The translations under genes were made by a program, and so were the position numbers. The notes beneath the pieces are model-generated. The model was given only the letters and a program-made list of their open reading frames with translations. It searched no databases and was not told where the DNA came from. DNA of 21,384 nt from a virus, in IMG/VR virus record IMGVR_UViG_3300040807_000560, positions 1 to 21,384 of that record, one strand, 5' to 3'. Of this stretch, positions 1,084 through 13,394 are shown in pieces; positions within the stretch are counted from its first letter, which is position 1, and every line of letters begins with the position of its first letter.

Positions 1084-1282
1084 CTTCTTTGTCCTTTCTT
1101 AGCATAAGGGCTTTTGCTTCGTCATAGTATCCCATGCGAGATAGTTCAGCAGCAGCTCTTGCTCTACCTGCTGATTCGCCTAGTGCAACAGCACCAACAA
1201 AAAATGCAATTAGTGCATTTCTGAAAACGGTGCAAATTTTGCATGTAACATTATAAAAACTTGTTTGAGTAATTGCAGTCAT
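1076..1282 (-). CDS. Small membrane-linked protein of the type that accompanies DUF1127 genes
   Basis: The product has 68 residues. Residues about 20-36 (FRNALIAFFVGAVALGE) are hydrophobic and may insert in a membrane. The C-terminal half, with GRARAAAELSRMGYYDEAKALM, resembles small alphaproteobacterial proteins that often accompany DUF1127 proteins. Its ATG shares a base with the stop of the DUF1127 gene (TAATG), so the two are translationally coupled. It may have been taken from a host. The link to DUF1127 rests on pattern memory and adjacency, not on a search. Confidence 0.65.
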   Translation of the reverse strand: MTAITQTSFYNVTCKICTVFRNALIAFFVGAVALGESAGRARAAAELSRMGYYDEAKALMLRKDKEDV

Positions 1283-1491
1283 TATCTTCTCTCCTCTAGG
1301 TCATATGCAACGCTGTAGATTTCTCCACGAGCAATACCTAGATCGTTAAGTTCATGATCGCTTAGTCTAGACAGTTCTTTAATAGTTTGTCTTGCTAGTC
1401 TTTCTCTAGCCATTGATGCGTTTAGTCTTTTGAACCACTCTGCAAGTGAGTGTAGGCCAATTCTATCAGCCGTCATTATAAGTGAAGTCAT
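1282..1491 (-). CDS. DUF1127 (YjiS-like) small protein
   Basis: This 69-residue protein carries the DUF1127 signature in residues about 33-60 (TIKELSRLSDHELNDLGIARG): an Arg-rich helix, L-S-x-L-S-D-x-E-L-x-D-L-G-I and a closing arginine-glycine. DUF1127 proteins are abundant in alphaproteobacteria. Studied members bind RNA or influence phosphate and carbon metabolism and small-RNA processing. AAGGAG lies 8 bases before the chosen ATG. It is the first gene of the cluster, behind a long structured leader and a late promoter. In a phage it could mimic the host factor, but that role is inferred. Confidence 0.82.
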   Translation of the reverse strand: MTSLIMTADRIGLHSLAEWFKRLNASMARERLARQTIKELSRLSDHELNDLGIARGEIYSVAYDLEERR

Positions 1492-2527: not shown

Positions 2528-3454
2528 ATGGGAATATTTAGTGGTGCTACAAAAGCAGTAGGTTGGTTAGGAGAAAAGTTAAACCTTAGTTGGTTAACAG
2601 GTGGAGCAGCAGGGGCAGCTCTTACTACTCCAACATCTGATATCACTGTTGAAATATCTGTGCCTGAACTATATCCTAGTCCAGGTGGACCGTTTCCTCT
2701 TCAACACCAAGGAAGTTTTACACTTAAGGTACCTGATCATAGTAAAGATCTAGGCGATATTGCTCTTAATATGGCGCAAAACTCTCTTGCTCTAGTTGAA
2801 CTAGCAATCGCAATACAAAGTATTGTTGATGAAGAAGGCGGCTTAAGAATCAAAGATCAATTAGATCCGTATCATTATCAAGTTATTAAAAATGCACTAG
2901 AAGAAAATAACGAACCTGTTCCTGAAGTTAGAGAACCTAATGCTACAGTATTAAGTGATTTAGGTGGAGAGATTACAGAAACAGGATTACTTTCAAATCT
3001 TGCAACAGCAGCTGATGCATTAGGTTCAGTTAGTCCTTTGGTAGAATCATATACATCTTTAGGCGCAGCTAAGTATAGGGTTCCTGGAAGAGTTAGTACA
3101 GGAGAGGTTGGCGCTTCCTTTGCTGATGGAAATAACCCAGAATCAGATTCCCCAATCAACGGGTTCCCTCCAGGCACAACAGCAGTTGATATGACTGTAT
3201 GGGTAAGTGGTTATTTTCCAGATTATTCATTACCTTATAAAATAATGAATTCGGCTATACAGATACAAGGGTTTATTATGCAATATGCAGTTTCTAATTT
3301 AAGAAATGCAATTGATACTGATGCTAAAGCTCTTGTACTTAAAAATTTAATGGGCGAATTTGGCAAAGAAGTTAGCGACAATGCTATCAAAGCTACAGGT
3401 AATACACCACCTGATTGGGAAGAACCTACTGGACAATCAGGAATAAGAAGCTAA
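2528..3454 (+). CDS. Probable virion protein upstream of PAAR, unknown
   Basis: The product has 308 residues. The N-terminal 35 residues are Gly/Ala-rich and partly hydrophobic (MGIFSGATKAVGWLGEKLN then TGGAAGAA). A beta-rich segment with SVPELYPSPGGPFPLQHQG, a helical middle, and a segment rich in Gly, Pro and Asn (about 190-225) follow. AAAGGAG lies 6 bases before ATG. Its stop overlaps the ATG of the PAAR gene (TAATG), so the two are made together, and a tail-tip or baseplate partner role is likely from context. I do not recognise a family. A chaperone or adaptor that loads the PAAR spike is another possibility. Confidence 0.7.
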   Translation: MGIFSGATKAVGWLGEKLNLSWLTGGAAGAALTTPTSDITVEISVPELYPSPGGPFPLQHQGSFTLKVPDHSKDLGDIALNMAQNSLALVELAIAIQSIVDEEGGLRIKDQLDPYHYQVIKNALEENNEPVPEVREPNATVLSDLGGEITETGLLSNLATAADALGSVSPLVESYTSLGAAKYRVPGRVSTGEVGASFADGNNPESDSPINGFPPGTTAVDMTVWVSGYFPDYSLPYKIMNSAIQIQGFIMQYAVSNLRNAIDTDAKALVLKNLMGEFGKEVSDNAIKATGNTPPDWEEPTGQSGIRS

Positions 3455-3735
3455 TGGCTAAAGTTGCAAGAAAAGAACAAGACATCGCAGTTGGCATTGT
3501 AAGAACAGGACGCCTAAGTGTTATTGTCAATGGCACACCTATTGCATGTGAAGGTGACTTAATTAACCCACATGCTCCTGGAGGCCCACACACTGCTAGT
3601 GTTATTGTTGGATATTGGCCTACTGTTTGGGCTGAAAACAGACAAGTAGCAAGAAAACATGATGCTACAAGTTGCGGCCATCCTATTCAAACAGGATCAT
3701 CTAACGTTTTTGTCGGTACTGACGATAACGGTTAA
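3454..3735 (+). CDS. PAAR-like tail-spike tip protein
   Basis: The chosen ATG at 3454 overlaps the preceding stop and gives 93 residues; an earlier in-frame start at 3415 would lie inside the upstream gene. PAAR proteins form the sharp cone on the gpV/VgrG-type membrane-piercing spike; T4 gp5.4 is the phage example. The signs are SVIVNGTPIACEGDLINPH, a pair of short beta repeats, late His and Cys residues (H in ARKHDATSCGHP, C in SCGH) that could hold the metal, and the ending GSSNVFVGTDDNG. The stop shares TTAA with the stop of the convergent lipase gene. Confidence 0.8.
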   Translation: MAKVARKEQDIAVGIVRTGRLSVIVNGTPIACEGDLINPHAPGGPHTASVIVGYWPTVWAENRQVARKHDATSCGHPIQTGSSNVFVGTDDNG

Positions 3736-4517
3736 GTTTGACTGTTTTCTTTTCCTTTAGCATACATTTCTAAATAGTTAATGTAGTTTGCCATTGAATG
3801 GTCTGAGAAACTATCAATTTGTCCTCTCTTTATGCCCATCCATAGTCCGCGCCACTTATCTTTGAAACGTTGCCAGCGAGTTGGCTTGCGTACATTGCCC
3901 CAACAGTTTAGATAGTGTTCTTCACCGTCGTGTTTGTATCCAATAAACCAAGGCGGAACAGTTGTAACAATGTCATTGTTGTTTACCCAACGATGATGTT
4001 TAGTTTGCATTGTATTTACATAACCTTTCCATCCTGCTCTAGGCGAGCCATATGTATAAAGTTCTTCAGCATCACGAACATTATCTTCGTAGTAACAACG
4101 AGCTGTCATAATAGTAGCCATTGCTGCTCCTAGGCTGTGTCCACAGAACCAAAGTTTTTTGTCTTTATTTTGTGTACGAGTAATATCTTCTAGTACCATA
4201 GGCCAAAGTTCGTCTACTTCTGCTTTGAATCCTCTGTGTACTCTTGACACTGTTTCTGATACTACAGGTGCTGCCTTTAGGTCAGCAGCAATATCATTAA
4301 ACTCACTTGGTTGTGTTCCACGACACGCTATAACTAGATCTTCTTTGTTCATAAAGCGATATGCCTGTGCGCCCTCCCTGTTGTAAAATTCAACAGTTGT
4401 AAACCCTAGATCTTTTACTTGCTTTTTTACTTCTTTGACGTTATCATTATACGCAATACTCGCAAGTTTAGCGAATAATAGAGAACGTTCAGGAAAACTC
4501 ATTTTTGTGATGCCCAT
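3732..4517 (-). CDS. Class 3 lipase-family alpha/beta hydrolase
   Basis: The product has 261 residues. GHSLG (126-130) gives the nucleophile S128. D182 in NNNDIVTTVPP and H196 in YKHDG complete a class 3 lipase triad, and RGTQP (66-70) matches the usual oxyanion-hole region. These enzymes hydrolyse ester bonds of acylglycerols or related lipids. No signal peptide is seen, so it acts in the cytoplasm or is carried in the virion. GAGGGG lies 5 bases before the ATG. A late promoter and a hairpin beginning at +1 lie just upstream (4541-4570). Late expression fits a role in envelope damage at lysis or in entry, which is inferred. Confidence 0.85.
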   Translation of the reverse strand: MGITKMSFPERSLLFAKLASIAYNDNVKEVKKQVKDLGFTTVEFYNREGAQAYRFMNKEDLVIACRGTQPSEFNDIAADLKAAPVVSETVSRVHRGFKAEVDELWPMVLEDITRTQNKDKKLWFCGHSLGAAMATIMTARCYYEDNVRDAEELYTYGSPRAGWKGYVNTMQTKHHRWVNNNDIVTTVPPWFIGYKHDGEEHYLNCWGNVRKPTRWQRFKDKWRGLWMGIKRGQIDSFSDHSMANYINYLEMYAKGKENSQT

Positions 4518-4540: not shown

Positions 4541-4570
4541 TGCTACTGCCCAGTAGCAAACGTATTTATA
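4541..4570 (-). promoter_or_regulatory. Late promoter TATAAATA with +1 hairpin for the lipase gene
   Basis: The minus strand reads TATAAATA at 4570-4563, then CGTTT, then GCTACTGGGCAGTAGC from 4557. That is a perfect 6-base stem with a GGGC loop, starting exactly at the predicted +1. The leader to the ATG is about 40 bases. Confidence 0.7.
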
Positions 4571-4581
4571 GTTTACATAAA

Positions 4582-4607
4582 CTAAATACTGTAACGGAGT
4601 ATTACAG
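4582..4607 (+). promoter_or_regulatory. Late promoter CTAAATA and hairpin holding the ribosome binding site
   Basis: CTAAATA (4582-4588) lies 19 bases before the ATG at 4608, back to back with the lipase promoter. CTGTAA (4589-4594) and TTACAG (4602-4607) are perfectly complementary and place CGGAG, the Shine-Dalgarno sequence, in a 7-base loop. A transcript from the predicted +1 (about 4593-4594) would lose most of the left arm, so only read-through or earlier transcripts could form the hairpin. Confidence 0.55.
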
Positions 4608-4871
4608 ATGAAAAAAAGAACCAGAAGTATACTAGAAGAATTAAACAATCTAGACCGTGCTAGAAGTAATGATCATTTGATCGAAGCTACTGGCAGTAAT
4701 ATAATTGAAAGTGCAATTAATTTACTTAATCGTATTTCAAAAACTTATGACGAAAGTACCGCTGGAGAATTAGAACGCCGCTTTATTAATAGTATTAAAT
4801 CTGGTGACCCGCAAAAATTTAAAAGAGGTCTTAAAAAAGTTATAGAGAGTAAACAAAATGATATTGAATGA
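4608..4871 (+). CDS. Small helical protein, candidate packaged head protein, unknown
   Basis: This 87-residue, highly charged and helical protein opens the operon 4608-7648. The first 30 residues (MKKRTRSILEELNNLDRARS onward) contain two possible prohead-protease sites, I-L-E at 8-10 and L-I-E|A at 24-27. The rest includes a segment ERRFINSIKSGDPQKFKRGL. The start has CGGAG 9 bases upstream. The end overlaps the nucleotidyltransferase gene by 14 bases. It resembles small conserved proteins of T4-like marine phages whose function is not known. Packaging is inferred from the N-terminus and neighbours. Confidence 0.7.
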   Translation: MKKRTRSILEELNNLDRARSNDHLIEATGSNIIESAINLLNRISKTYDESTAGELERRFINSIKSGDPQKFKRGLKKVIESKQNDIE

Positions 4872-5733
4872 AGGCGGATCAATGCCGGGCGTAGGCCCAA
4901 TTCACATTAGTGAAATTGAACCTACATTAGATGCACTAGAAAAATCTTTAGGTATAGATCTAAAGAACAATGTTCTCGGTAGTGTAGGTAAAAAAGAGTT
5001 TAGCGGCGACATAGATGTTGCAATTCAAGTAGATCCTGATAAAATTCCTGAACTTGTAAAGAAAATTGAAGCAAGTCCTTTGGTAAAAGACATTGCAAAG
5101 TCCAGTGTTATTATGACAAGTGTTGACATTGTAAATTATGATGCAAGTAAACAAACAGTAAAACCTAGAACAGGTAAAGTACAAGTAGACTTTATGCCAG
5201 GTGATCCAGGTTGGATGAAAACATACTATCATAGTCCAAGTGAAAAAGAATCAAAGTATAAAGGTGTATTCCGTAATATTATGATTGCAACTATCTGTGC
5301 AGTGTACCAAAGACAAGACTCTGAAGAAAAAATAGACGATGGTCGTGCAGTTGAAAGCGAGCGTTGGATGTGGAGTCCTGCAGACGGACTTGTAAGAATT
5401 AAGCGTACTCCTGTACCTAAAGCAAATGGACAAGGTTATACAAAGAAAAACAAAAACGAAATTATAGCACAGCCAATTCGTACTGCTCCAGAAATTGCAA
5501 AAGCATTAGGTCTAAATGGACCTGAAGATTTAAACAGTTACGAAAGTTTAAAAGCAGCAATTGAAAAGAATTATCCAGCAGAACTAGTTACAAAGATTTT
5601 AGATAGCTTTGCTGAAAACGGACAAGTTAAAGATATTGGTGTACCAGATGATCTAGTTAAACAAGAAAGTTTAGCAGACAAACAATTAAATAGAATTAAG
5701 CAGTTAACAGGATATAAACAATATGAGGTTTAA
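4858..5733 (+). CDS. Nucleotidyltransferase-fold protein (GS...DxD, hD)
   Basis: The product has 291 residues. GS (41-42) followed by DID (51-53) and V-D-F (D111) form the metal-binding signature of the DNA polymerase beta / minimal nucleotidyltransferase superfamily: GS, then DxD on one strand, then a third Asp on a neighbouring strand. Such enzymes transfer an NMP to a nucleic acid, antibiotic or protein. The C-terminal 120 residues are Lys-rich and helical, and may bind RNA or a partner. The start at 4858 overlaps the preceding gene; M9 is an alternative. It overlaps the ligase-like gene by 11 bases, which suggests a joint function. The substrate cannot be told from sequence. Confidence 0.75.
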   Translation: MILNEGGSMPGVGPIHISEIEPTLDALEKSLGIDLKNNVLGSVGKKEFSGDIDVAIQVDPDKIPELVKKIEASPLVKDIAKSSVIMTSVDIVNYDASKQTVKPRTGKVQVDFMPGDPGWMKTYYHSPSEKESKYKGVFRNIMIATICAVYQRQDSEEKIDDGRAVESERWMWSPADGLVRIKRTPVPKANGQGYTKKNKNEIIAQPIRTAPEIAKALGLNGPEDLNSYESLKAAIEKNYPAELVTKILDSFAENGQVKDIGVPDDLVKQESLADKQLNRIKQLTGYKQYEV

Positions 5734-6865
5734 CGAATTTAGAAACTTTATAAAGAAACCGTTAACTGAAGCTGCTCGCATTCAACACGCAGAAGATATT
5801 ATTTTCTGGGAGGGCAGTCGTGGTGCAATGCGAGCACTTGAAGCTCTTAAAAGTATGGAAAAGGGTTCGCATAAAGATGTTACATTAAAATGGGACGGAA
5901 GTCCTGCAATCATTTTTGGACGTAACGAAAATGGAGAATTTGTACTTACAGACAAGAGTGGCTTTACAGCAAAAGGCTATGACGGAAAAACAACATCAGC
6001 AGATGCACTAGGCACAATGTTAGGCAATCGTCCAGGAGCTAAAAAAGATCCTAAAGGCTACGGTTCTTTCATACAAAATATGCAAGACATATTTGACGAG
6101 TATGAAAAAGCAACACCTAAAGATCATAGAGGTTACTTCAAAGGCGACTTATTATATTTTAACACACCTGCAAAGATAGATGGTAACTATGTGTTTAAAC
6201 CAAACATTGTAGAATATGCAGTTGATGTAAATTCAGACTTAGGTAAACGTATTGGAAAATCAAAAACAGGTGTAGTTATACACAGAGTTGTAGACGAATA
6301 TGGCAACGAAGGTCCTTTAAAGAATGCTGATATATTTCAAGGTAATGAAGTATTAGTTGTTCCGCCTGTTACTGTAGAACGTCCTGCAGATGTAGACAAT
6401 CAACAAATTGTACAATTAGAAAGATTAATCCAACAAAATTCTTCTGGCATTGATGAATTGTTAAATACAGATGCACTAAGAGAAATGAAAATAAGTGATT
6501 TTGCACAAGTATTGTACGCCTATACAAACAGTAAAGTTGATACTGGCCTAGAAAATTTAGGTTCTGATTTTGCACAATGGGTACAAAATAGGAAACAGTT
6601 GTCAGAAAGGAAAAAGGCAACAATACTTGAGTATGTAAATCAGCATAGAAATGCATTTAATGCGTTATGGCAAACAGTAACAGCATTAATGACTGTAAAA
6701 GATAATATTATTCAACAGTTTGACTCACATGATCAAACTGTTAAATCAAACATTCCAGGACACGGCGATGGCGGTGAAGGCTATGTACTAGCGCATCCTG
6801 AAGGTGATATTAAACTAGTACCAAGAGAATTCTTCACTAAAGCTAATAGAGCTGTTCAACGATAA
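5723..6865 (+). CDS. Ligase-like covalent nucleotidyltransferase candidate (DUF6267-like)
   Basis: The product has 380 residues. LKWDGSPAIIFGR (55-67) matches motif I (KxDG) of ATP-dependent DNA/RNA ligases, with K56 the candidate AMP-accepting lysine. YFKGDLLYF (138-146) resembles motif III. GEGYVL (351-356) and IKLVP with K364 resemble motifs IV and V. Residues about 225-340 are helical and look inserted between the motifs. The N-terminus MRFNEFRNFIKKPLTEA resembles T4 capsid-targeting sequences and has an L-T-E|A site at 14-17. It overlaps the nucleotidyltransferase gene by 11 bases. I believe it belongs to a phage family annotated only as DUF6267. Ligase activity is inferred from motif order, not shown. 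Confidence 0.65.
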   Translation: MRFNEFRNFIKKPLTEAARIQHAEDIIFWEGSRGAMRALEALKSMEKGSHKDVTLKWDGSPAIIFGRNENGEFVLTDKSGFTAKGYDGKTTSADALGTMLGNRPGAKKDPKGYGSFIQNMQDIFDEYEKATPKDHRGYFKGDLLYFNTPAKIDGNYVFKPNIVEYAVDVNSDLGKRIGKSKTGVVIHRVVDEYGNEGPLKNADIFQGNEVLVVPPVTVERPADVDNQQIVQLERLIQQNSSGIDELLNTDALREMKISDFAQVLYAYTNSKVDTGLENLGSDFAQWVQNRKQLSERKKATILEYVNQHRNAFNALWQTVTALMTVKDNIIQQFDSHDQTVKSNIPGHGDGGEGYVLAHPEGDIKLVPREFFTKANRAVQR

Positions 6866-6875
6866 GGAGCAAAAA

Positions 6876-7322
6876 ATGAAAGATTATATGAAAGAGTTTG
6901 AAGCACACTTAAACAAGGTTACTGAAGGTGTGTTAGATGACGAAGTAAAAGAAGCTGGCATGGAGATGACTGACCAACAGCGTAAACTAGCAGAGTATGG
7001 TAGAATACTAATGGATCAGGCTGTGACACAAAAAGACGATGCATTGTCAAATGTAATGGCAAAGGTAGGTAATGAACTTACTAACTATGGTTCATCATTT
7101 GGTGCAAGAAGTTTAGATGATCTTGTTAAAAAGACAGGCACTTCACCAAACATAATTAAAAAATTACTAGCATTTGCGGAAAATATTGCAGCTACTCAAA
7201 AACATCTTGATACAGATCATGACTCAGGTGGTCTTGATGACGAAGGTGATGATGAATTTACCCAAGCGTCAGATGACGAAATGGCAGCAATGGCAGATCG
7301 TGCAGCGAGAGATGCAGACTAA
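6876..7322 (+). CDS. Acidic helical protein, unknown
   Basis: The product has 148 residues with AAGGAG 8 bases before the ATG. It is helical in the first 110 residues and very acidic at the end (a run rich in Asp, Glu and Gly, then MAAMADRAARDAD). The N-terminus (MKDYMKEFEAHLNKVTEG) begins like the packaged-protein pattern, with a weaker V-T-E|G site. The next gene starts at its stop (TAATG). It could be a scaffold-like or internal head component, or an acidic partner for the basic virion proteins nearby. No family is recognised. Confidence 0.7.
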   Translation: MKDYMKEFEAHLNKVTEGVLDDEVKEAGMEMTDQQRKLAEYGRILMDQAVTQKDDALSNVMAKVGNELTNYGSSFGARSLDDLVKKTGTSPNIIKKLLAFAENIAATQKHLDTDHDSGGLDDEGDDEFTQASDDEMAAMADRAARDAD

Positions 7323-7648
7323 TGAACTTTATTAAAGATATGTATAAAGAAGGGCTAGTTGAAAGTCAATTAGACGAGGATGCCTGGGCTGATATTAGAG
7401 GCCGTCGCATAGAACGTTTATCAAAAGAAAAACGTGTAGCACTATATGCATATCTAGTTGGCTTAGAAAATGCTATGAGAGCTACTAAGTTTGTAGAAAT
7501 GGCTGAAGAAGGTCGTACCCCACCAAATCAATATGTAAAAGGCTATGCTCCTATAGTTGAAATGATAGATGATATAGTTGAAGGCGGTACAGCATACATA
7601 CAACAGCTAAGACAACTACATAAACGAGCTAAAAAAGGGCGTAAATAG
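7322..7648 (+). CDS. Basic helical protein, unknown
   Basis: The product has 108 residues. The N-terminus (MNFIKDMYKEGLVESQLDE) carries L-V-E|S at 12-15 and L-D-E at 17-19. The body is helical with GRRIERLSKEKRVALYAYLVGLE, and the C-terminus is strongly basic (RQLHKRAKKGRK). It is the last gene of the 4608-7648 operon, translationally coupled to the acidic protein upstream, so an acidic/basic pair is possible. A weak terminator overlaps its last codons. No catalytic motif is seen. Confidence 0.7.
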   Translation: MNFIKDMYKEGLVESQLDEDAWADIRGRRIERLSKEKRVALYAYLVGLENAMRATKFVEMAEEGRTPPNQYVKGYAPIVEMIDDIVEGGTAYIQQLRQLHKRAKKGRK

Positions 7649-7657
7649 CCTATTTTT
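7631..7657 (+). terminator. Weak terminator at the end of the 4608-7648 operon
   Basis: AAAAAAGGGC (7631-7640) can pair imperfectly with GCCTATTTTT (7648-7657), leaving a short loop and a T5 run. It overlaps the stop codon region. The G-T pair and mismatch make it weak. Confidence 0.35.
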
Positions 7658-7667
7658 GTCTAAAAGA

Positions 7668-7701
7668 CTAAATACATATAACAACTTCACTGAGCGTGAA
7701 G
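7668..7701 (+). promoter_or_regulatory. Late promoter CTAAATA with 5' hairpin before the gene at 7733
   Basis: CTAAATA at 7668-7674 predicts a start at about 7680. CTTCAC (7685-7690), TGAGC, GTGAAG (7696-7701) forms a perfect 6-base hairpin within the first 22 bases of the transcript. TAGGAG follows 7 bases before the ATG. Confidence 0.65.
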
Positions 7702-7732
7702 ATGTGTCATAGAGAAAATATAGGAGAATAAC

Positions 7733-8017
7733 ATGGCAGGACCAGGATTTGGCGCAATCGCAGGCGTCGACAATTACAAAGCAAGAGCAGGAAGTGGCTT
7801 AGGCCCACGCACACAGATCGTTGTAACAGACGCCGCTGTGGCAGACCAAGCTGCACTAGACGCAATCGTTGCAGCAGCAGGCGTTGGCGGATGGACAGTA
7901 GCAGGCATTGCAGGTTCATTAGCAGGCGTTATGCACATCGCACTACAAGGTGGCGGTGATGCAGACGGCGAAACTATTGGACAAGCAGTTTCAATTGTAG
8001 CAGACTTCACTGAATAA
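7733..8017 (+). CDS. Small, probably abundant structural protein, unknown
   Basis: This 94-residue protein is rich in Ala and Gly with few charged residues. It starts MAGPGFGAIAGVDNYKAR, has an Ala/Val-rich middle and ends in a short acidic tail. It has a strong ribosome binding site, its own late promoter with a 5' hairpin, and a strong terminator, so it is a single-gene transcription unit. Its base composition is clearly GC-richer than its neighbours, with many C-ending codons, as in highly expressed genes. Together these point to an abundant virion component such as a head decoration or tube protein. No family was recognised. An open frame on the opposite strand is taken as a shadow. Confidence 0.75.
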   Translation: MAGPGFGAIAGVDNYKARAGSGLGPRTQIVVTDAAVADQAALDAIVAAAGVGGWTVAGIAGSLAGVMHIALQGGGDADGETIGQAVSIVADFTE

Positions 8018-8061
8018 TTCCTAACTACCTTAGGGACCGTGACAACGGAAGGCGTCACACT

Positions 8062-8092
8062 AAAGCGTCACTTTTTAAGTGGCGCTTTTTTT
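8062..8092 (+). terminator. Strong intrinsic terminator
   Basis: AAAGCGTCACTT (8062-8073) and AAGTGGCGCTTT (8077-8088) form a 12-base stem with one G-T pair and a TTT loop, ending in a run of seven T (8086-8092). A second GGCGTCAC at 8051-8058 could compete for the right arm, and GTGAC (8039-8043) pairs with GTCAC (8054-8058). Confidence 0.85.
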
Positions 8093-8095
8093 ATG

Positions 8096-8109
8096 ACTGT
8101 AAATACAGT
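8096..8109 (+). promoter_or_regulatory. Palindrome ACTGTAAATACAGT with late motif, leaderless start
   Basis: ACTGTA, AA, TACAGT is a perfect palindrome lying between the terminator and the ATG at 8110. It contains GTAAATA (8099-8105), a late-type motif, and four bases later comes the ATG. No Shine-Dalgarno sequence is present. Since transcription should stop at 8092, a promoter here is needed. Confidence 0.55.
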
Positions 8110-8505
8110 ATGAGATTTCAGATAAAAACGCTAGTAGATGTTACAGAAACACAAGCTCGTAAAGGGCAAGATAAGAAACTAGTAAATCAACAAGATAACT
8201 TTAATACGTTATACAATACAATTGGACTGCGTACAAACCCATCTGATTTTAAGATAACCGTTGAAACACAGTCATTAGCAGATTTAACATTTGGTAAAAA
8301 ATATAAAGGAAAGCAAAAGGTTTGGACAATTGAGTTCTTTGTTGAACAAGAAGCATCAACTAGTGTAGACATGATGATAGATGATTTTAATCTAGTACCT
8401 ATTATTACAGGTCTTGATGAAACTATAAATTTAGATACAGATATGTTTATCACTTCCAAAAATAAGGACTTAACTAACATTATTTTCATTGAAATTGATA
8501 AATAA
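8110..8505 (+). CDS. Conserved T4-like phage protein, unknown
   Basis: This 131-residue, mostly beta-rich protein (MRFQIKTLVDVTETQARKG at the start, IEFFVEQEASTSVDMMIDDF in the middle, IIFIEIDK at the end) resembles a conserved family in T4-like marine phages with no assigned role. It starts 4 bases after a late-type TAAATA and has no ribosome binding site, so it is predicted to be translated from a leaderless mRNA. A second late motif overlaps its stop and serves the next gene. No catalytic residues stand out. Confidence 0.75.
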   Translation: MRFQIKTLVDVTETQARKGQDKKLVNQQDNFNTLYNTIGLRTNPSDFKITVETQSLADLTFGKKYKGKQKVWTIEFFVEQEASTSVDMMIDDFNLVPIITGLDETINLDTDMFITSKNKDLTNIIFIEIDK

Positions 8506-8525
8506 AAATGTAGCAAAGATGTTAC
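8498..8525 (+). promoter_or_regulatory. Late promoter ATAAATA with +1 hairpin for the XhlA-like gene
   Basis: ATAAATA (8498-8504) overlaps the stop of the previous gene. Five bases later, at 8510, GTAGCA pairs with TGTTAC (8520-8525, one G-T pair) around a 4-base loop. The predicted leader is about 93 bases. Confidence 0.6.
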
Positions 8526-8572
8526 TAGGCAACATATATACAACTTAAGGCCAACTACGAGTTTACTTAACA

Positions 8573-8587
8573 TCCTACATTGTAGGA
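8573..8587 (+). promoter_or_regulatory. Hairpin just before the XhlA-like ribosome binding site
   Basis: TCCTAC, ATT, GTAGGA forms a perfect 6-base stem with a 3-base loop, ending a few bases before ACGGAG and 15 bases before the ATG. It could shield or present the ribosome binding site. Confidence 0.45.
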
Positions 8588-8602
8588 CATACGGAGAAAT
8601 AT

Positions 8603-8836
8603 ATGGCATCGCCTACACAACTTGAAAAAGAAAATTTAGAAGCACACGTAGACTTATGCGCTCAACGCTATGAAGTCTTAGAAGGTCGCCTCACTAAAGT
8701 TGAAGAAAAGATAGACCATATTCACAAAGATATTACAGAAGGTCAAAAGTCATTGACCAAAGTCCTAATTGGTACAGCAGGTACTGTTATTGCAGGACTA
8801 CTTTCCACAGTAATCGTTATTATTACACAAAGTTAA
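8603..8836 (+). CDS. XhlA-like coiled-coil membrane protein (holin-associated candidate)
   Basis: The product has 77 residues. Residues 1-50 form a charged coiled coil (LEKENLEAHVDLCAQRYEVL and on). Residues about 54-75 (VLIGTAGTVIAGLLSTVIVII) form a single C-terminal membrane helix. This matches XhlA-type haemolysin/holin-associated proteins of phages. The membrane anchor with a cytoplasmic coiled coil fits a lysis or membrane-docking role. CGGAG lies 7 bases before ATG, and the leader has two hairpins, so timing may be controlled. Holin activity is not certain, because one helix only is present and no endolysin is seen in this window. Confidence 0.75.
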   Translation: MASPTQLEKENLEAHVDLCAQRYEVLEGRLTKVEEKIDHIHKDITEGQKSLTKVLIGTAGTVIAGLLSTVIVIITQS

Positions 8837-8842
8837 ATCTCG

Positions 8843-8849
8843 ATAAATA
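8843..8849 (+). promoter_or_regulatory. Late motif ATAAATA 5 bases before ATG, leaderless start
   Basis: ATAAATA is followed by ACTAT and the ATG at 8855, with no Shine-Dalgarno sequence, so the predicted +1 is the A of the start codon. Confidence 0.55.
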
Positions 8850-8854
8850 ACTAT

Positions 8855-9166
8855 ATGTTATTACGAGAATTTTTTAATCAGCCAGCCTCATCTGACGATA
8901 ACCTAGAAGAAAAACAAGTATGGGCTCGTCGAGGAAAAGAAGTTGTCCGCAAATACCGTTGTCAAGGCGGTAGACGCAACGGACGCATTGTTGCTAAAAT
9001 GGCACAATGTTATGCAGCACCTGATGCAAAAAAACGTGCAAGACTAAAAGTTATGAAGGCAAAACTAGGTAGTAGAATTGCTAAAAAAACTAAAAGGACT
9101 AAGCGTATTAATCCTGCCTCAATAAGAGTACAGAGATTAAACAAGATGCAAAAAAGGAAACGCTGA
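8855..9166 (+). CDS. Basic virion-associated protein, first of two paralogues
   Basis: This 103-residue protein is very rich in Lys and Arg. The N-terminus MLLREFFNQPASSDDNLEEK has an L-E-E site at 17-19, then QVWARRGKEVVRKYRCQGGRRNGRIV, a conserved Cys pair (C36 and C51) and a basic tail with NPASIRVQRLNK. The next gene repeats the same order, so they arose by duplication. High positive charge suggests DNA or RNA binding, and the N-terminus suggests head packaging with protease trimming. A histone-like internal head protein is my best guess. Its stop shares a base with the next ATG. Confidence 0.75.
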   Translation: MLLREFFNQPASSDDNLEEKQVWARRGKEVVRKYRCQGGRRNGRIVAKMAQCYAAPDAKKRARLKVMKAKLGSRIAKKTKRTKRINPASIRVQRLNKMQKRKR

Positions 9167-9465
9167 TGTTAATCAGAGAACTTATCGAAGCCACACAAGT
9201 ATGGAGTAAAAAGGGAACATCAAGTGTTCGCAAGTATCGCTGTACCAGTGGAGTTCGCAAAGGTCGTGTAATGAGTTCTCCAGCAGCATGTAATAAACCA
9301 ATGAATATACACAAATCTAAATCATTAAAACAAACACGATCACAAAAAGCACCAACAATGAAATTTAAAAGCAAGATTGCTAAACGATCAAATCCTGCTT
9401 CAAATAGAAATATCAGATTAAATAAATCTGTTAAACCCAAAAGAACTAGGAGAAAGATTAGATGA
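9166..9465 (+). CDS. Basic virion-associated protein, second paralogue
   Basis: This 99-residue paralogue of the previous protein has the common core QVWSKKGTSSVRKYRC, GVRKGRV, a second Cys, a basic tail and NPASNRNIRLNK. The N-terminus MLIRELIEA has L-I-E|A at 6-9, the site nearest to the T4 internal-protein arrangement. The two genes are in direct tandem with a one-base stop/start overlap. The Cys residues could bind metal or form a disulphide. DNA binding inside the head is inferred from charge and context. Confidence 0.75.
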   Translation: MLIRELIEATQVWSKKGTSSVRKYRCTSGVRKGRVMSSPAACNKPMNIHKSKSLKQTRSQKAPTMKFKSKIAKRSNPASNRNIRLNKSVKPKRTRRKIR

Positions 9466-9713
9466 AAATTTCAGACATTATAGAAAACAACAACTCAAAC
9501 GCTAAAGTTTCAAAAGTTATTGGTAATAAAGTTACTATTGATAACGGCGACGGCACTGAATTAACGGTTGACACAAAGAAAAATCCAAATGTTGTAGACC
9601 AAGATGCAGAGGGCAACGTAACTGTTGATCCCGAAGCTGGTAATAGCAAACAAAACGGAAATAATAGAAATAGAATCCGTCCAGGACAATCAGTAAACAG
9701 ACCAAATTCATGA
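9462..9713 (+). CDS. Small hydrophilic protein, unknown
   Basis: The product has 83 residues and begins MKISDIIENNNSNAKV with an I-I-E|N site at 6-9. A short beta segment (VIGNKVTIDNGDGTELTVD) precedes an Asn/Gly-rich, probably disordered tail. It overlaps both neighbours by 4 bases (ATGA type), so it is coupled in translation. The position among packaged-protein candidates is the only hint of role. Confidence 0.65.
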   Translation: MKISDIIENNNSNAKVSKVIGNKVTIDNGDGTELTVDTKKNPNVVDQDAEGNVTVDPEAGNSKQNGNNRNRIRPGQSVNRPNS

Positions 9714-9916
9714 AAATAAACGAATTGATAAAAACTTTCACAATACAAGTGTCTAACGAAGAACAAGCTGTTCTTGAAAAGTTAGATAGACAAACTCCCT
9801 TGTCTTTGTTTACTGAAAGAGAACAATTCGTAATTGAAAACTTGATGAAGAAAAGTTTGGTAAGTAAGGTAGTATTTAATAGCCAGACAGTTGTTGTGAG
9901 AAATGACCTACAATAG
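9710..9916 (+). CDS. Small helical protein with KINEL start, unknown
   Basis: The product has 68 residues: MKINELIKTFTIQVSNEEQA, then a helix-rich stretch with FTEREQFVIENLMKKSLVSK and a final beta segment (VVFNSQTVVVRND). The layout of helices followed by a strand pair could fit a winged-helix fold, but the evidence is thin. It overlaps its neighbours by 4 and 14 bases. No protease site follows the N-terminal pattern at the expected distance. Confidence 0.65.
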   Translation: MKINELIKTFTIQVSNEEQAVLEKLDRQTPLSLFTEREQFVIENLMKKSLVSKVVFNSQTVVVRNDLQ

Positions 9917-12713: not shown

Positions 12714-13394
12714 TTGACATTAATTTTAAATAGGTATGATTACCAACCCATCTCACGAAAACAAATAAACGGCAAAAGACTTTACGAAACACCTGACGGC
12801 AATGCTGTTGCAAGTGTTACAACTATCCTCGACGCTACTAAAGATAAGACACATCTTATTGCTTGGAAGAAACGTGTAGGCGAACAAAAAGCACAAGAGA
12901 TTGTAACTGAAGCAGCAGGTGTAGGTACACGTATGCACAAGTACCTTGAAGACTACATTGACACAGGCGAGTGGCCACAACCTGGCAGTAATCCATATGC
13001 TCAACAAGCACATAGTATGGCAGAGCAGATTCGTAATAATGCTATGGTAGATGTAGACGAAATATGGGGATCTGAAGTTAATTTGTATATGCCTAACATG
13101 TATGCAGGCACAACTGACTTGGTAGGACAGTACAAAGGCCAGCCCTCAATCATGGACTTTAAACAAACAAACAAGCCTAAGAAAGTAGAATGGGTAGTTG
13201 ATTACTTCCTACAACTTGTCGCATATGCAGAAGCACATAATGAAATCTATGGCACAGAGATACGCGAAGGACATGTGTTTATGTGCAGTCGTGCAGGAGA
13301 ATATCAGCAGTTTGATATTTGGCCAGACGAGTATGATGAATGGCGCAACGAATGGTACGAACGAGTGTATAAGTATTACGAAAAGAATGGATAA
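12714..13394 (+). CDS. PD-(D/E)XK nuclease, RecB/Cas4-like
   Basis: The product has 226 residues from a TTG start with AGGA 8 bases upstream; no in-frame ATG is near. The conserved residues of RecB-type nucleases occur in order: H75 in GTRMHKYLED, D135 in GTTDLVG, D148-x-K150 in IMDFKQTNK, and QLVAY (167-171). Such enzymes cut or trim DNA using Mg2+ ions. Related exonucleases occur in T4-like cyanophages. An early sigma70 promoter fits a role in host DNA breakdown or phage recombination. The PSVTTIL-like SVTTILDATKD segment near residues 34-44 also fits that family. Confidence 0.85.
   Translation: MTLILNRYDYQPISRKQINGKRLYETPDGNAVASVTTILDATKDKTHLIAWKKRVGEQKAQEIVTEAAGVGTRMHKYLEDYIDTGEWPQPGSNPYAQQAHSMAEQIRNNAMVDVDEIWGSEVNLYMPNMYAGTTDLVGQYKGQPSIMDFKQTNKPKKVEWVVDYFLQLVAYAEAHNEIYGTEIREGHVFMCSRAGEYQQFDIWPDEYDEWRNEWYERVYKYYEKNG

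What the first reader, a model, noticed from the sequence alone, without database searches (positions are those of the whole stretch)
4858..6865. Overlapping nucleotidyltransferase-fold and ligase-like genes, a possible two-enzyme nucleic acid system
Two adjoining genes (11-base overlap) encode a GS...DxD...D nucleotidyltransferase and a protein with KWDG (K56), GDL, EGY and IKL motifs in the order of ATP-dependent ligases, split by a helical insertion. End-modification followed by joining would be a coherent RNA/DNA repair or tagging unit, here inside a late, apparently virion-linked operon. The motifs are seen; the joint function is inferred.
Basis: partly seen in the sequence, partly recalled or inferred. 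Interest (0 to 1): 0.75.

Follow-up and report, generated by a model that had tools for sequence, protein, structure and literature searches.

The report
Phage polymerase-plus-ligase pair, probably capsid-packaged
Two overlapping genes of a marine T4-like phage encode a DNA-polymerase-beta-like enzyme and a ligase-like enzyme that stay together, and sometimes fuse, across many phages; they are made late and appear to be cut like proteins carried inside the phage head, which suggests a small repair kit injected with the phage DNA.

Summary
The 291-aa protein is a Pol-beta-superfamily nucleotidyltransferase: AlphaFold pLDDT 92, closest solved folds DNA polymerases beta and lambda (Foldseek E 6.6e-6, Z 9.8), covering palm and N-subdomain. 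The 380-aa protein is Pfam DUF6267 (E 6e-38), function unknown; its model (pLDDT 92) matches only ATP-dependent RNA/DNA ligases among the 50 VIA rows (best Z 7.4). The pair is a real unit: 92 of 92 testable DUF6267 loci have the NTase upstream, 12 loci fuse both in one ORF, and jumbo phages PA5oct, Phosso and Atu_ph07 pair it with another ligase-like protein. In relatives, the PA5oct NTase and the cytidyltransferase partner of cyanophage DUF6267 are virion proteins by mass spectrometry. Best explanation: a virion-carried gap-filling and nick-sealing module, like the packaged PolX/ligase of African swine fever virus. Substrate (DNA or RNA) and packaging of this very pair are unproven.

The parts
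4582..4589 (+). Late-promoter-type motif CTAAATAC, just upstream of the operon
   Evidence: Present in window (3 copies vs about 1 expected, so weak alone); [ACT]TAAATA upstream of the 4608-family gene in 129/132 unique loci, shuffle mean 12.4, max 22; CTAAATA form 23-30 nt before the ATG in nearly all that have it; CTAAATA is the late promoter reported for T4-like phage Aeh1 (PMC1524935)
4608..4871 (+). 87-aa protein, phrog_11854 'virion structural protein'; first gene of the unit, predicted prohead-protease site LIE26|A
   Evidence: phrog_11854 E 8.9e-15; homologue also upstream of the pair in PA5oct, with a similar small gene in Phosso
4858..5733 (+). PolX-like nucleotidyltransferase, 291 aa; catalytic D51, D53, D111; predicted processing site LNE5|GG
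   Evidence: AlphaFold pLDDT 92.2; Foldseek Pol beta E 6.6e-6; VIA Z 9.8 Pol beta, 9.7 Pol lambda; hhalign vs PolX profile E 7.9e-6; residue conservation
5723..6865 (+). DUF6267 protein, 380 aa, ATP-dependent-ligase-like; K56 (motif I), K78 (Ia-like), D142 (III), E352 (IV), K364 (V); helical insertion 226-335; predicted processing site LTE16|A in a disordered leader
   Evidence: PF19782 E 6e-38; AlphaFold pLDDT 91.9, residues 11-17 below 50; VIA list all ligases, best Z 7.4; K56/E352 158/158
6876..7322 (+). 148-aa protein of unknown function, N-terminus ...VTE17|G; co-directional neighbour, found next to the pair in some relatives
7322..7648 (+). 108-aa protein of unknown function, N-terminus ...LVE14|S; common downstream neighbour

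Best explanation
The pair is a two-enzyme strand-repair module: a minimal family-X-like polymerase that fills short gaps and an ATP-dependent-ligase-like protein (DUF6267) that seals the remaining nick. Both are made late, carried to the prohead core by short N-terminal leaders, trimmed by a T4-type prohead protease after [LIV]-x-E, and delivered into the next host with the genome, where they repair damage in the incoming DNA before phage genes are expressed. Shown here (computed): the two folds, invariance of catalytic residues, near-obligate gene pairing and natural fusions, late-promoter motif, conserved protease-type sites. Shown elsewhere for relatives: virion presence of the PA5oct NTase and of the cytidyltransferase that partners DUF6267 in a cyanophage. 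Inferred: that this very pair is packaged, that it is catalytically active, and that the substrate is gapped or nicked DNA.
For: Polymerase-like fold and profile: reversed control E 0.42; PolX ranks above CCA, PcnB and GlnE controls in the profile search. Ligase-like fold; homology with the PA5oct/Phosso/Atu/L260 ligase-like proteins, hhalign E 3.4e-4 over 294 columns (reversed 0.68); the Atu_ph07 one shows a sub-threshold Pfam RNA_ligase match, E 0.0022. Functional linkage: 92/92 and 75/101 loci, 12 fusions, L260 ligase-like + NTase fusion in the other order, same pairing in three jumbo phages. Packaging: E5 in 175/175 and E16 in 157/158 aligned rows although E16 lies in a segment of pLDDT below 50; site kept at fusion junctions, e.g. 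VITE|AARI; Phosso NTase starts directly MGGAAF; motif enriched in genes 4608-9916, 8/11 vs 3/23, Fisher p 0.001; late promoter; PA5oct NTase EST35_0231 annotated from ESI-MS/MS; S-SM1 cytidyltransferase T4-GC190, whose gene overlaps the DUF6267 gene, found in S-SM1 virions (PMC3037559). Precedents: ASFV packages PolX and ligase (PMC12172490); PgV PolX-ligase fusion is active in base excision repair in vitro (PMC5537341).
Against: The NTase hits no PolX Pfam model and DUF6267 hits no ligase Pfam model. Single-sequence PolX comparisons are weak and hhalign of DUF6267 to canonical phage ligases is not significant. Foldseek to the PDB for DUF6267 is only E 0.028, and Z 7.4 is within the range of common arrangements. 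No lyase/HhH domain, OB domain or ligase motif VI was recognised. 26 of 101 NTase loci lack DUF6267 nearby. In cyanophages DUF6267 is paired with a HIGH-type cytidyltransferase instead. The PA5oct ligase-like gene product is annotated 'hypothetical', without the ESI-MS/MS note its NTase carries, and the PA5oct NTase has no LxE|GG leader. No gp21-type protease was found in three larger contigs of this clade (G001, G002, G006). No AP endonuclease or glycosylase was sought.
Confidence: 0.5

Rival explanations
1. RNA repair against host anticodon nucleases: the NTase restores missing nucleotides and DUF6267 is an RNA ligase that reseals cleaved tRNAs. If virion-carried, it would act at the start of infection.
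For: The best single VIA match of DUF6267 is an RNA ligase (N. gruberi, Z 7.4) and Foldseek's top row is a tRNA ligase. The Pfam trace in the jumbo-phage relatives is RNA_ligase. Phage NTase + RNA ligase repair is described as a counter-defence theme (PMC9503650).
Against: DNA ligases score within about 1 Z of the RNA ligases. The NTase resembles a DNA polymerase including its base-pair subdomain, not CCA/PAP enzymes. No end-healing enzyme (Pnkp, 2H, KptA) was seen in the operon, though none was specifically sought.
Confidence: 0.2
2. A late intracellular DNA repair/replication pair that is not packaged; the [LIV]-x-E motif is a chance or folding feature. In cyanophages, which were reported to lack a T4 gp30 ligase, DUF6267 would be the missing ligase.
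For: Synteny with helicase, exonuclease and ribonucleotide reductase genes. Cyanomyoviruses were reported to lack a recognisable DNA ligase (PMC2984593).
Against: E16 is invariant in a disordered leader and E-G-G is kept at internal fusion junctions. The operon is late. Virion mass spectrometry exists for the PA5oct NTase and the cyanophage partner. Other contigs of this clade already encode a PF01068 DNA ligase.
Confidence: 0.15
3. Virion-delivered host-takeover effectors: the NTase and the ligase-fold protein nucleotidylylate host proteins or small molecules, in the manner of T4 Alt or the Pol-beta NTases proposed for polyvalent proteins.
For: Same packaging logic as T4 Alt. Pol-beta NTases in polyvalent proteins were proposed to modify proteins (PMC5512222). 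The cyanophage partner is an unrelated, NMNAT-like nucleotidyltransferase.
Against: Those NTases are minimal four-strand versions; this one has a PolX-type second subdomain. Ligase motifs I, III, IV and V are all kept, as needed for nucleic-acid end joining.
Confidence: 0.1
4. Structural head proteins derived from enzymes, catalytically inert.
For: Neighbours are virion structural families.
Against: Catalytic residues are invariant across every aligned homologue of two diverse families.
Confidence: 0.05

Closest known systems
DUF6267 (PF19782) / phrog_455, cyanophage family of unknown function
   Same: The 5723-6865 protein is a member (131.6 bits, cut-off 27)
   Different: In cyanophages it is adjacent or fused to a HIGH-type cytidyltransferase; here to a PolX-like NTase
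African swine fever virus virion-packaged PolX and DNA ligase (PMC5330486, PMC12172490)
   Same: Minimal PolX without thumb and 8-kDa domains plus a DNA ligase, both in the virus particle
   Different: Separate genes in a eukaryotic virus; packaged with an AP endonuclease; sequence relationship not tested here
Phaeocystis globosa virus PolX-ligase fusion (PMC5537341)
   Same: Pol-beta-like core joined to a ligase, gap filling then sealing
   Different: NAD+-type ligase and lyase activity; here ATP-type ligase motifs and no lyase domain
T4 internal head proteins (Alt, IPs) with capsid-targeting sequence (PMC5694885)
   Same: Short N-terminal leader removed by a prohead protease that cuts after Glu; late expression
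   Different: Cargo here is a putative nucleic-acid repair pair; cleavage not shown
PA5oct EST35_0228/0231 and the equivalent genes of phages Phosso and Atu_ph07
   Same: Ligase-like protein plus homologous NTase in one gene block; PA5oct NTase annotated by ESI-MS/MS as structural
   Different: Ligase-like gene lies upstream of the NTase and is too diverged to hit DUF6267

Membership tests
DUF6267 (PF19782) | Score above the curated cut-off | tested here: met
   131.6 bits vs 27
Family X DNA polymerase | Pol-beta palm with GS...DxD...D | tested here: met
   D51/D53/D111 invariant; palm fold match
Family X DNA polymerase | Nascent-base-pair (N) subdomain after the palm | tested here: met
   Model 1-229 aligned to Pol beta up to residue 335 and Pol lambda up to 575-580; colinear hhalign through the N-subdomain
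Family X DNA polymerase | Match to a PolX Pfam model | tested here: not met
   No Pfam hit at E<1 for the window protein; the L244 fusion gave only PF18765 Polbeta E 0.076. Therefore filed as PolX-like, not as a member
Family X DNA polymerase | HhH thumb and 8-kDa lyase domains | tested here: not met
   Only about 40 residues precede the GS motif; ASFV PolX also lacks both (PMC5330486)
Family X DNA polymerase | Templated gap-filling activity | not testable with these tools
   Needs assay
ATP-dependent nucleic-acid ligase superfamily | Motifs I (KxDG), III, IV (EG), V (K) in order with invariant Lys and Glu | tested here: met
   158/158 for K56, E352, K364; D142 in place of the usual Glu of motif III
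ATP-dependent nucleic-acid ligase superfamily | Adenylyltransferase-domain fold | tested here: met
   All 50 listed VIA rows are ligases, Z 7.4-5.3, 158-194 residues; Foldseek E only 0.028
ATP-dependent nucleic-acid ligase superfamily | Match to PF01068 or PF09414 | tested here: not met
   No hit for window protein; sub-threshold PF09414 in diverged relatives. Filed as ligase-like
ATP-dependent nucleic-acid ligase superfamily | C-terminal OB or other nucleic-acid-binding domain and motif VI | tested here: inconclusive
   Protein ends 16 residues after K364; helical insert 226-335 may substitute
T4-type capsid-internal (CTS) protein | N-terminal leader ending in a prohead-protease-type site | tested here: met
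   LNE5|GG, LTE16|A; conserved P1 Glu; cleavage itself not shown
T4-type capsid-internal (CTS) protein | gp21-type protease in the same genome | tested here: inconclusive
   Window is a 21-kb fragment; found in PA5oct, Phosso, Atu_ph07, P-RSM6 and G004, not in G001/G002/G006
T4-type capsid-internal (CTS) protein | Presence in purified virions | not testable with these tools
   Only for relatives: PA5oct NTase, cyanophage partner
Packaged viral BER kit (ASFV, PgV) | AP endonuclease or lyase accompanying PolX and ligase | not tested
   Only a PD-(D/E)XK-type exonuclease (12714-13394) seen in the window; Pfam match just under cut-off

The most novel reading that the evidence does not exclude
Ocean T4-like phages and some jumbo phages carry inside the capsid a dedicated polymerase-plus-ligase gap-repair kit (PolX-like NTase + DUF6267), processed from leaders or polyproteins by the prohead protease and injected with the genome to mend it before gene expression; DUF6267, widespread in cyanophages, is a new ligase family.
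Probability: 0.4. Interest if true: 0.85.

Novelty: new variant of a known kind. Interest (0 to 1): 0.7.

Why it matters
Packaged repair enzymes are reported for large eukaryotic viruses; a virion-borne polymerase-ligase pair in phages would be a convergent solution, relevant to how sunlit ocean phages survive DNA damage and to what enters a cell with phage DNA. It would give a function to DUF6267, whose relatives occur in 468 GenBank phage records, mostly cyanophages, and could supply the ligase that cyanomyoviruses were reported to lack. It is directly testable: two proteins with predicted catalytic residues and exact predicted cleavage points.

Tried and rejected
PDB sequence searches with single proteins and with profiles A1/A2: no meaningful hit. 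hhalign of DUF6267 against canonical phage RNA and DNA ligases: not significant (E 0.46, 0.32), so homology rests on fold, motifs and the jumbo-phage intermediates. NTase in plasmids: none. A CCA-adding, poly(A)-polymerase or GlnE-like reading of the NTase: controls scored at noise level. T4 consensus TATAAATA as late promoter upstream of the operon: 0 of 132; the CTAAATA/NTAAATA form fits instead. gp21-type protease in the large contigs G001/G002/G006: not found with PF03420 or one protease sequence. ADP-ribosyltransferase identity for the Atu_ph07 downstream array was suspected but not confirmed by Pfam. Literature on DUF6267: none in the held library; on a phage-packaged PolX or ligase: none found.

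Full report
Observation. The two ORFs exist at 4858-5733 and 5723-6865, + strand, overlapping by 11 bases. The second is a clear member of Pfam DUF6267 (131.6 bits, E 6e-38) and phrog_455, both 'unknown function'; the first has no Pfam family. The window is a 21,384-base IMG/VR virus fragment from what looks like a T4-superfamily phage, with nrdA/nrdB homologous to those of cyanomyoviruses.

Conservation. Scans of IMG/VR gave 80 loci per query with many more matches. In non-redundant alignments the DUF6267 motifs K56-W-D-G, D142, G-E352-G and K364 and the NTase residues G50-D51-x-D53 and D111 are invariant. Over all unique homologues K56 and E352 are 158/158 among aligned rows, and D51, D53 and D111 are never replaced.

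Folds. DUF6267 was modelled at pLDDT 91.9. Foldseek to the PDB is weak on E-value but its first three rows are tRNA ligases. The VIA second look lists only ATP-dependent RNA and DNA ligases in all 50 rows, Z 7.4 to 5.3. Z below 8 alone is not decisive; the uniformity plus motif order makes it convincing. The viral library matches cytidyltransferase fusions of S-PM2 and others, and PA5oct A0A4Y5JUK8 (446 aa, the length of EST35_0228; E 2.7e-4). The NTase (pLDDT 92.2) matches DNA polymerase beta at E 6.6e-6 and Pol beta/lambda at Z 9.8/9.7 with 157-184 residues covering palm and N-subdomain. Profile-profile alignment to a nine-member PolX set gave E 7.9e-6 and a colinear match through the N-subdomain; the reversed control gave 0.42, and E. 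coli CCA, PcnB and GlnE gave 0.08-0.25. Single PolX sequences scored weakly, so the relationship is distant.

One unit. Of DUF6267 loci with enough upstream DNA, 92/92 have the NTase upstream, most with the stop and start codons touching; nine have a longer gap (208-923 bp), in the cases read a peptidoglycan-hydrolase-type gene. In 12 loci the two are one ORF of 555-746 aa. In L260 a KVDG ligase-like domain and the NTase share an 894-aa ORF in the opposite order. In PA5oct, Phosso and Atu_ph07 a ligase-like gene with KxDG lies upstream of the homologous NTase, overlapping it in the last two. These ligase-like proteins align with DUF6267 over 294 columns, including the helical insert and motifs IV-V (E 3.4e-4, reversed 0.68). 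In cyanophages DUF6267 is instead followed by or fused to a CTP_transf_like enzyme.

Late and capsid-internal. A late-promoter-type motif precedes the operon in 129/132 unique loci, matching CTAAATA of phage Aeh1 (PMC1524935) and NATAAATA of cyanophages (PMC2984593). Operon proteins start with short leaders ending in [LIV]-x-E followed by G/A/S: LIE|A, LNE|GG, LTE|A, VTE|G, LVE|S; 8/11 genes vs 3/23 elsewhere in the window, p 0.001 (the gene grouping was chosen after seeing the pattern). T4 gp21 and its relatives cut after Glu in such leaders (PMC5694885). E16 of DUF6267 is conserved in 157/158 although it lies where the model is disordered, and the site is kept inside fusions, e.g. VITE|AARIEHPED, where no start codon explains it. 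The Phosso NTase begins MGGAAF, i.e. at the predicted mature end. The PA5oct NTase is annotated as a virion protein by ESI-MS/MS. The S-SM1 cytidyltransferase T4-GC190, whose gene overlaps that for DUF6267 (SSM1_189) by 14 bases, was found in virions (PMC3037559). Similar cytidyltransferase/NMNAT-like proteins were found in virions of S-CREM2, S-SCSM1 and S-SZBM1 (PMC10665884, PMC9602691, PMC9146016). That the window's own pair is packaged is an inference.

Mechanism. Polymerase-like NTase plus ligase-like protein suggests gap filling followed by sealing. Packaging suggests action on incoming DNA before gene expression, the argument made for ASFV, whose virion holds PolX, ligase and AP endonuclease (PMC12172490) and whose PolX lacks the thumb and 8-kDa domains (PMC5330486). 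A PolX-ligase fusion is active in vitro for PgV (PMC5537341). RNA repair is the main rival, since the ligase fold does not separate DNA from RNA ligases. Several relatives already carry an ordinary PF01068 ligase, so DUF6267 would be an additional, specialised one; cyanophages, in contrast, were said to lack a ligase (PMC2984593).

Limits. No activity, structure or virion data exist for this phage; hosts are unknown; the protease was not found in three larger contigs of the clade; 26 of 101 NTase loci lack DUF6267, some with the NTase at the end of 800-1100-aa ORFs. Membership in family X or in the ligase families is not claimed, because the curated models are not matched.

Noticed in passing
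1282-1491 (-): DUF1127 protein (E 8e-14), a small family common in proteobacteria (own knowledge); hints at a proteobacterial host.
   Followed up: no
3732-4517 (-): Class 3 lipase (PF01764, E 7.6e-21) divergent from the operon, with TATAAATA on the minus strand at 4563-4570 just upstream; found beside the pair in about 80 loci.
   Followed up: partly
8855-9465 (+): Two adjacent small, very basic, similar proteins (VRKYRC, R/K-rich) with leader-like N-termini; possible DNA-binding internal head proteins.
   Followed up: no
L005:1352-2152 and equivalents in L008, L016: Peptidoglycan-binding plus cell-wall-hydrolase-type genes inserted between NTase and DUF6267.
   Followed up: partly
L129, L145, L151, L254: NTase domain at the C-terminus of 800-1100-aa ORFs (N-terminus MRI.EVDK.L), followed in those read by two Cys-rich, radical-SAM-looking genes, without DUF6267.
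   Followed up: no
L292:7576-12552 (Agrobacterium phage Atu_ph07): Downstream of the NTase and ligase-like genes, an array of related-looking genes, most starting M[RK]WxQL[TI]E, looking like capsid-targeted effectors; no Pfam identity for those tested.
   Followed up: partly
L290:4073-4990, L291:4015-4914, L161:6647-7666: Gene next to DUF6267/ligase-like genes in DLP_6, EniLVp02 and PA5oct with a possible PD-(D/E)XK pattern; no Pfam family found.
   Followed up: partly
3415-3735 (+): PAAR-motif protein (PF05488, E 3.5e-13), probable tail-spike tip.
   Followed up: no
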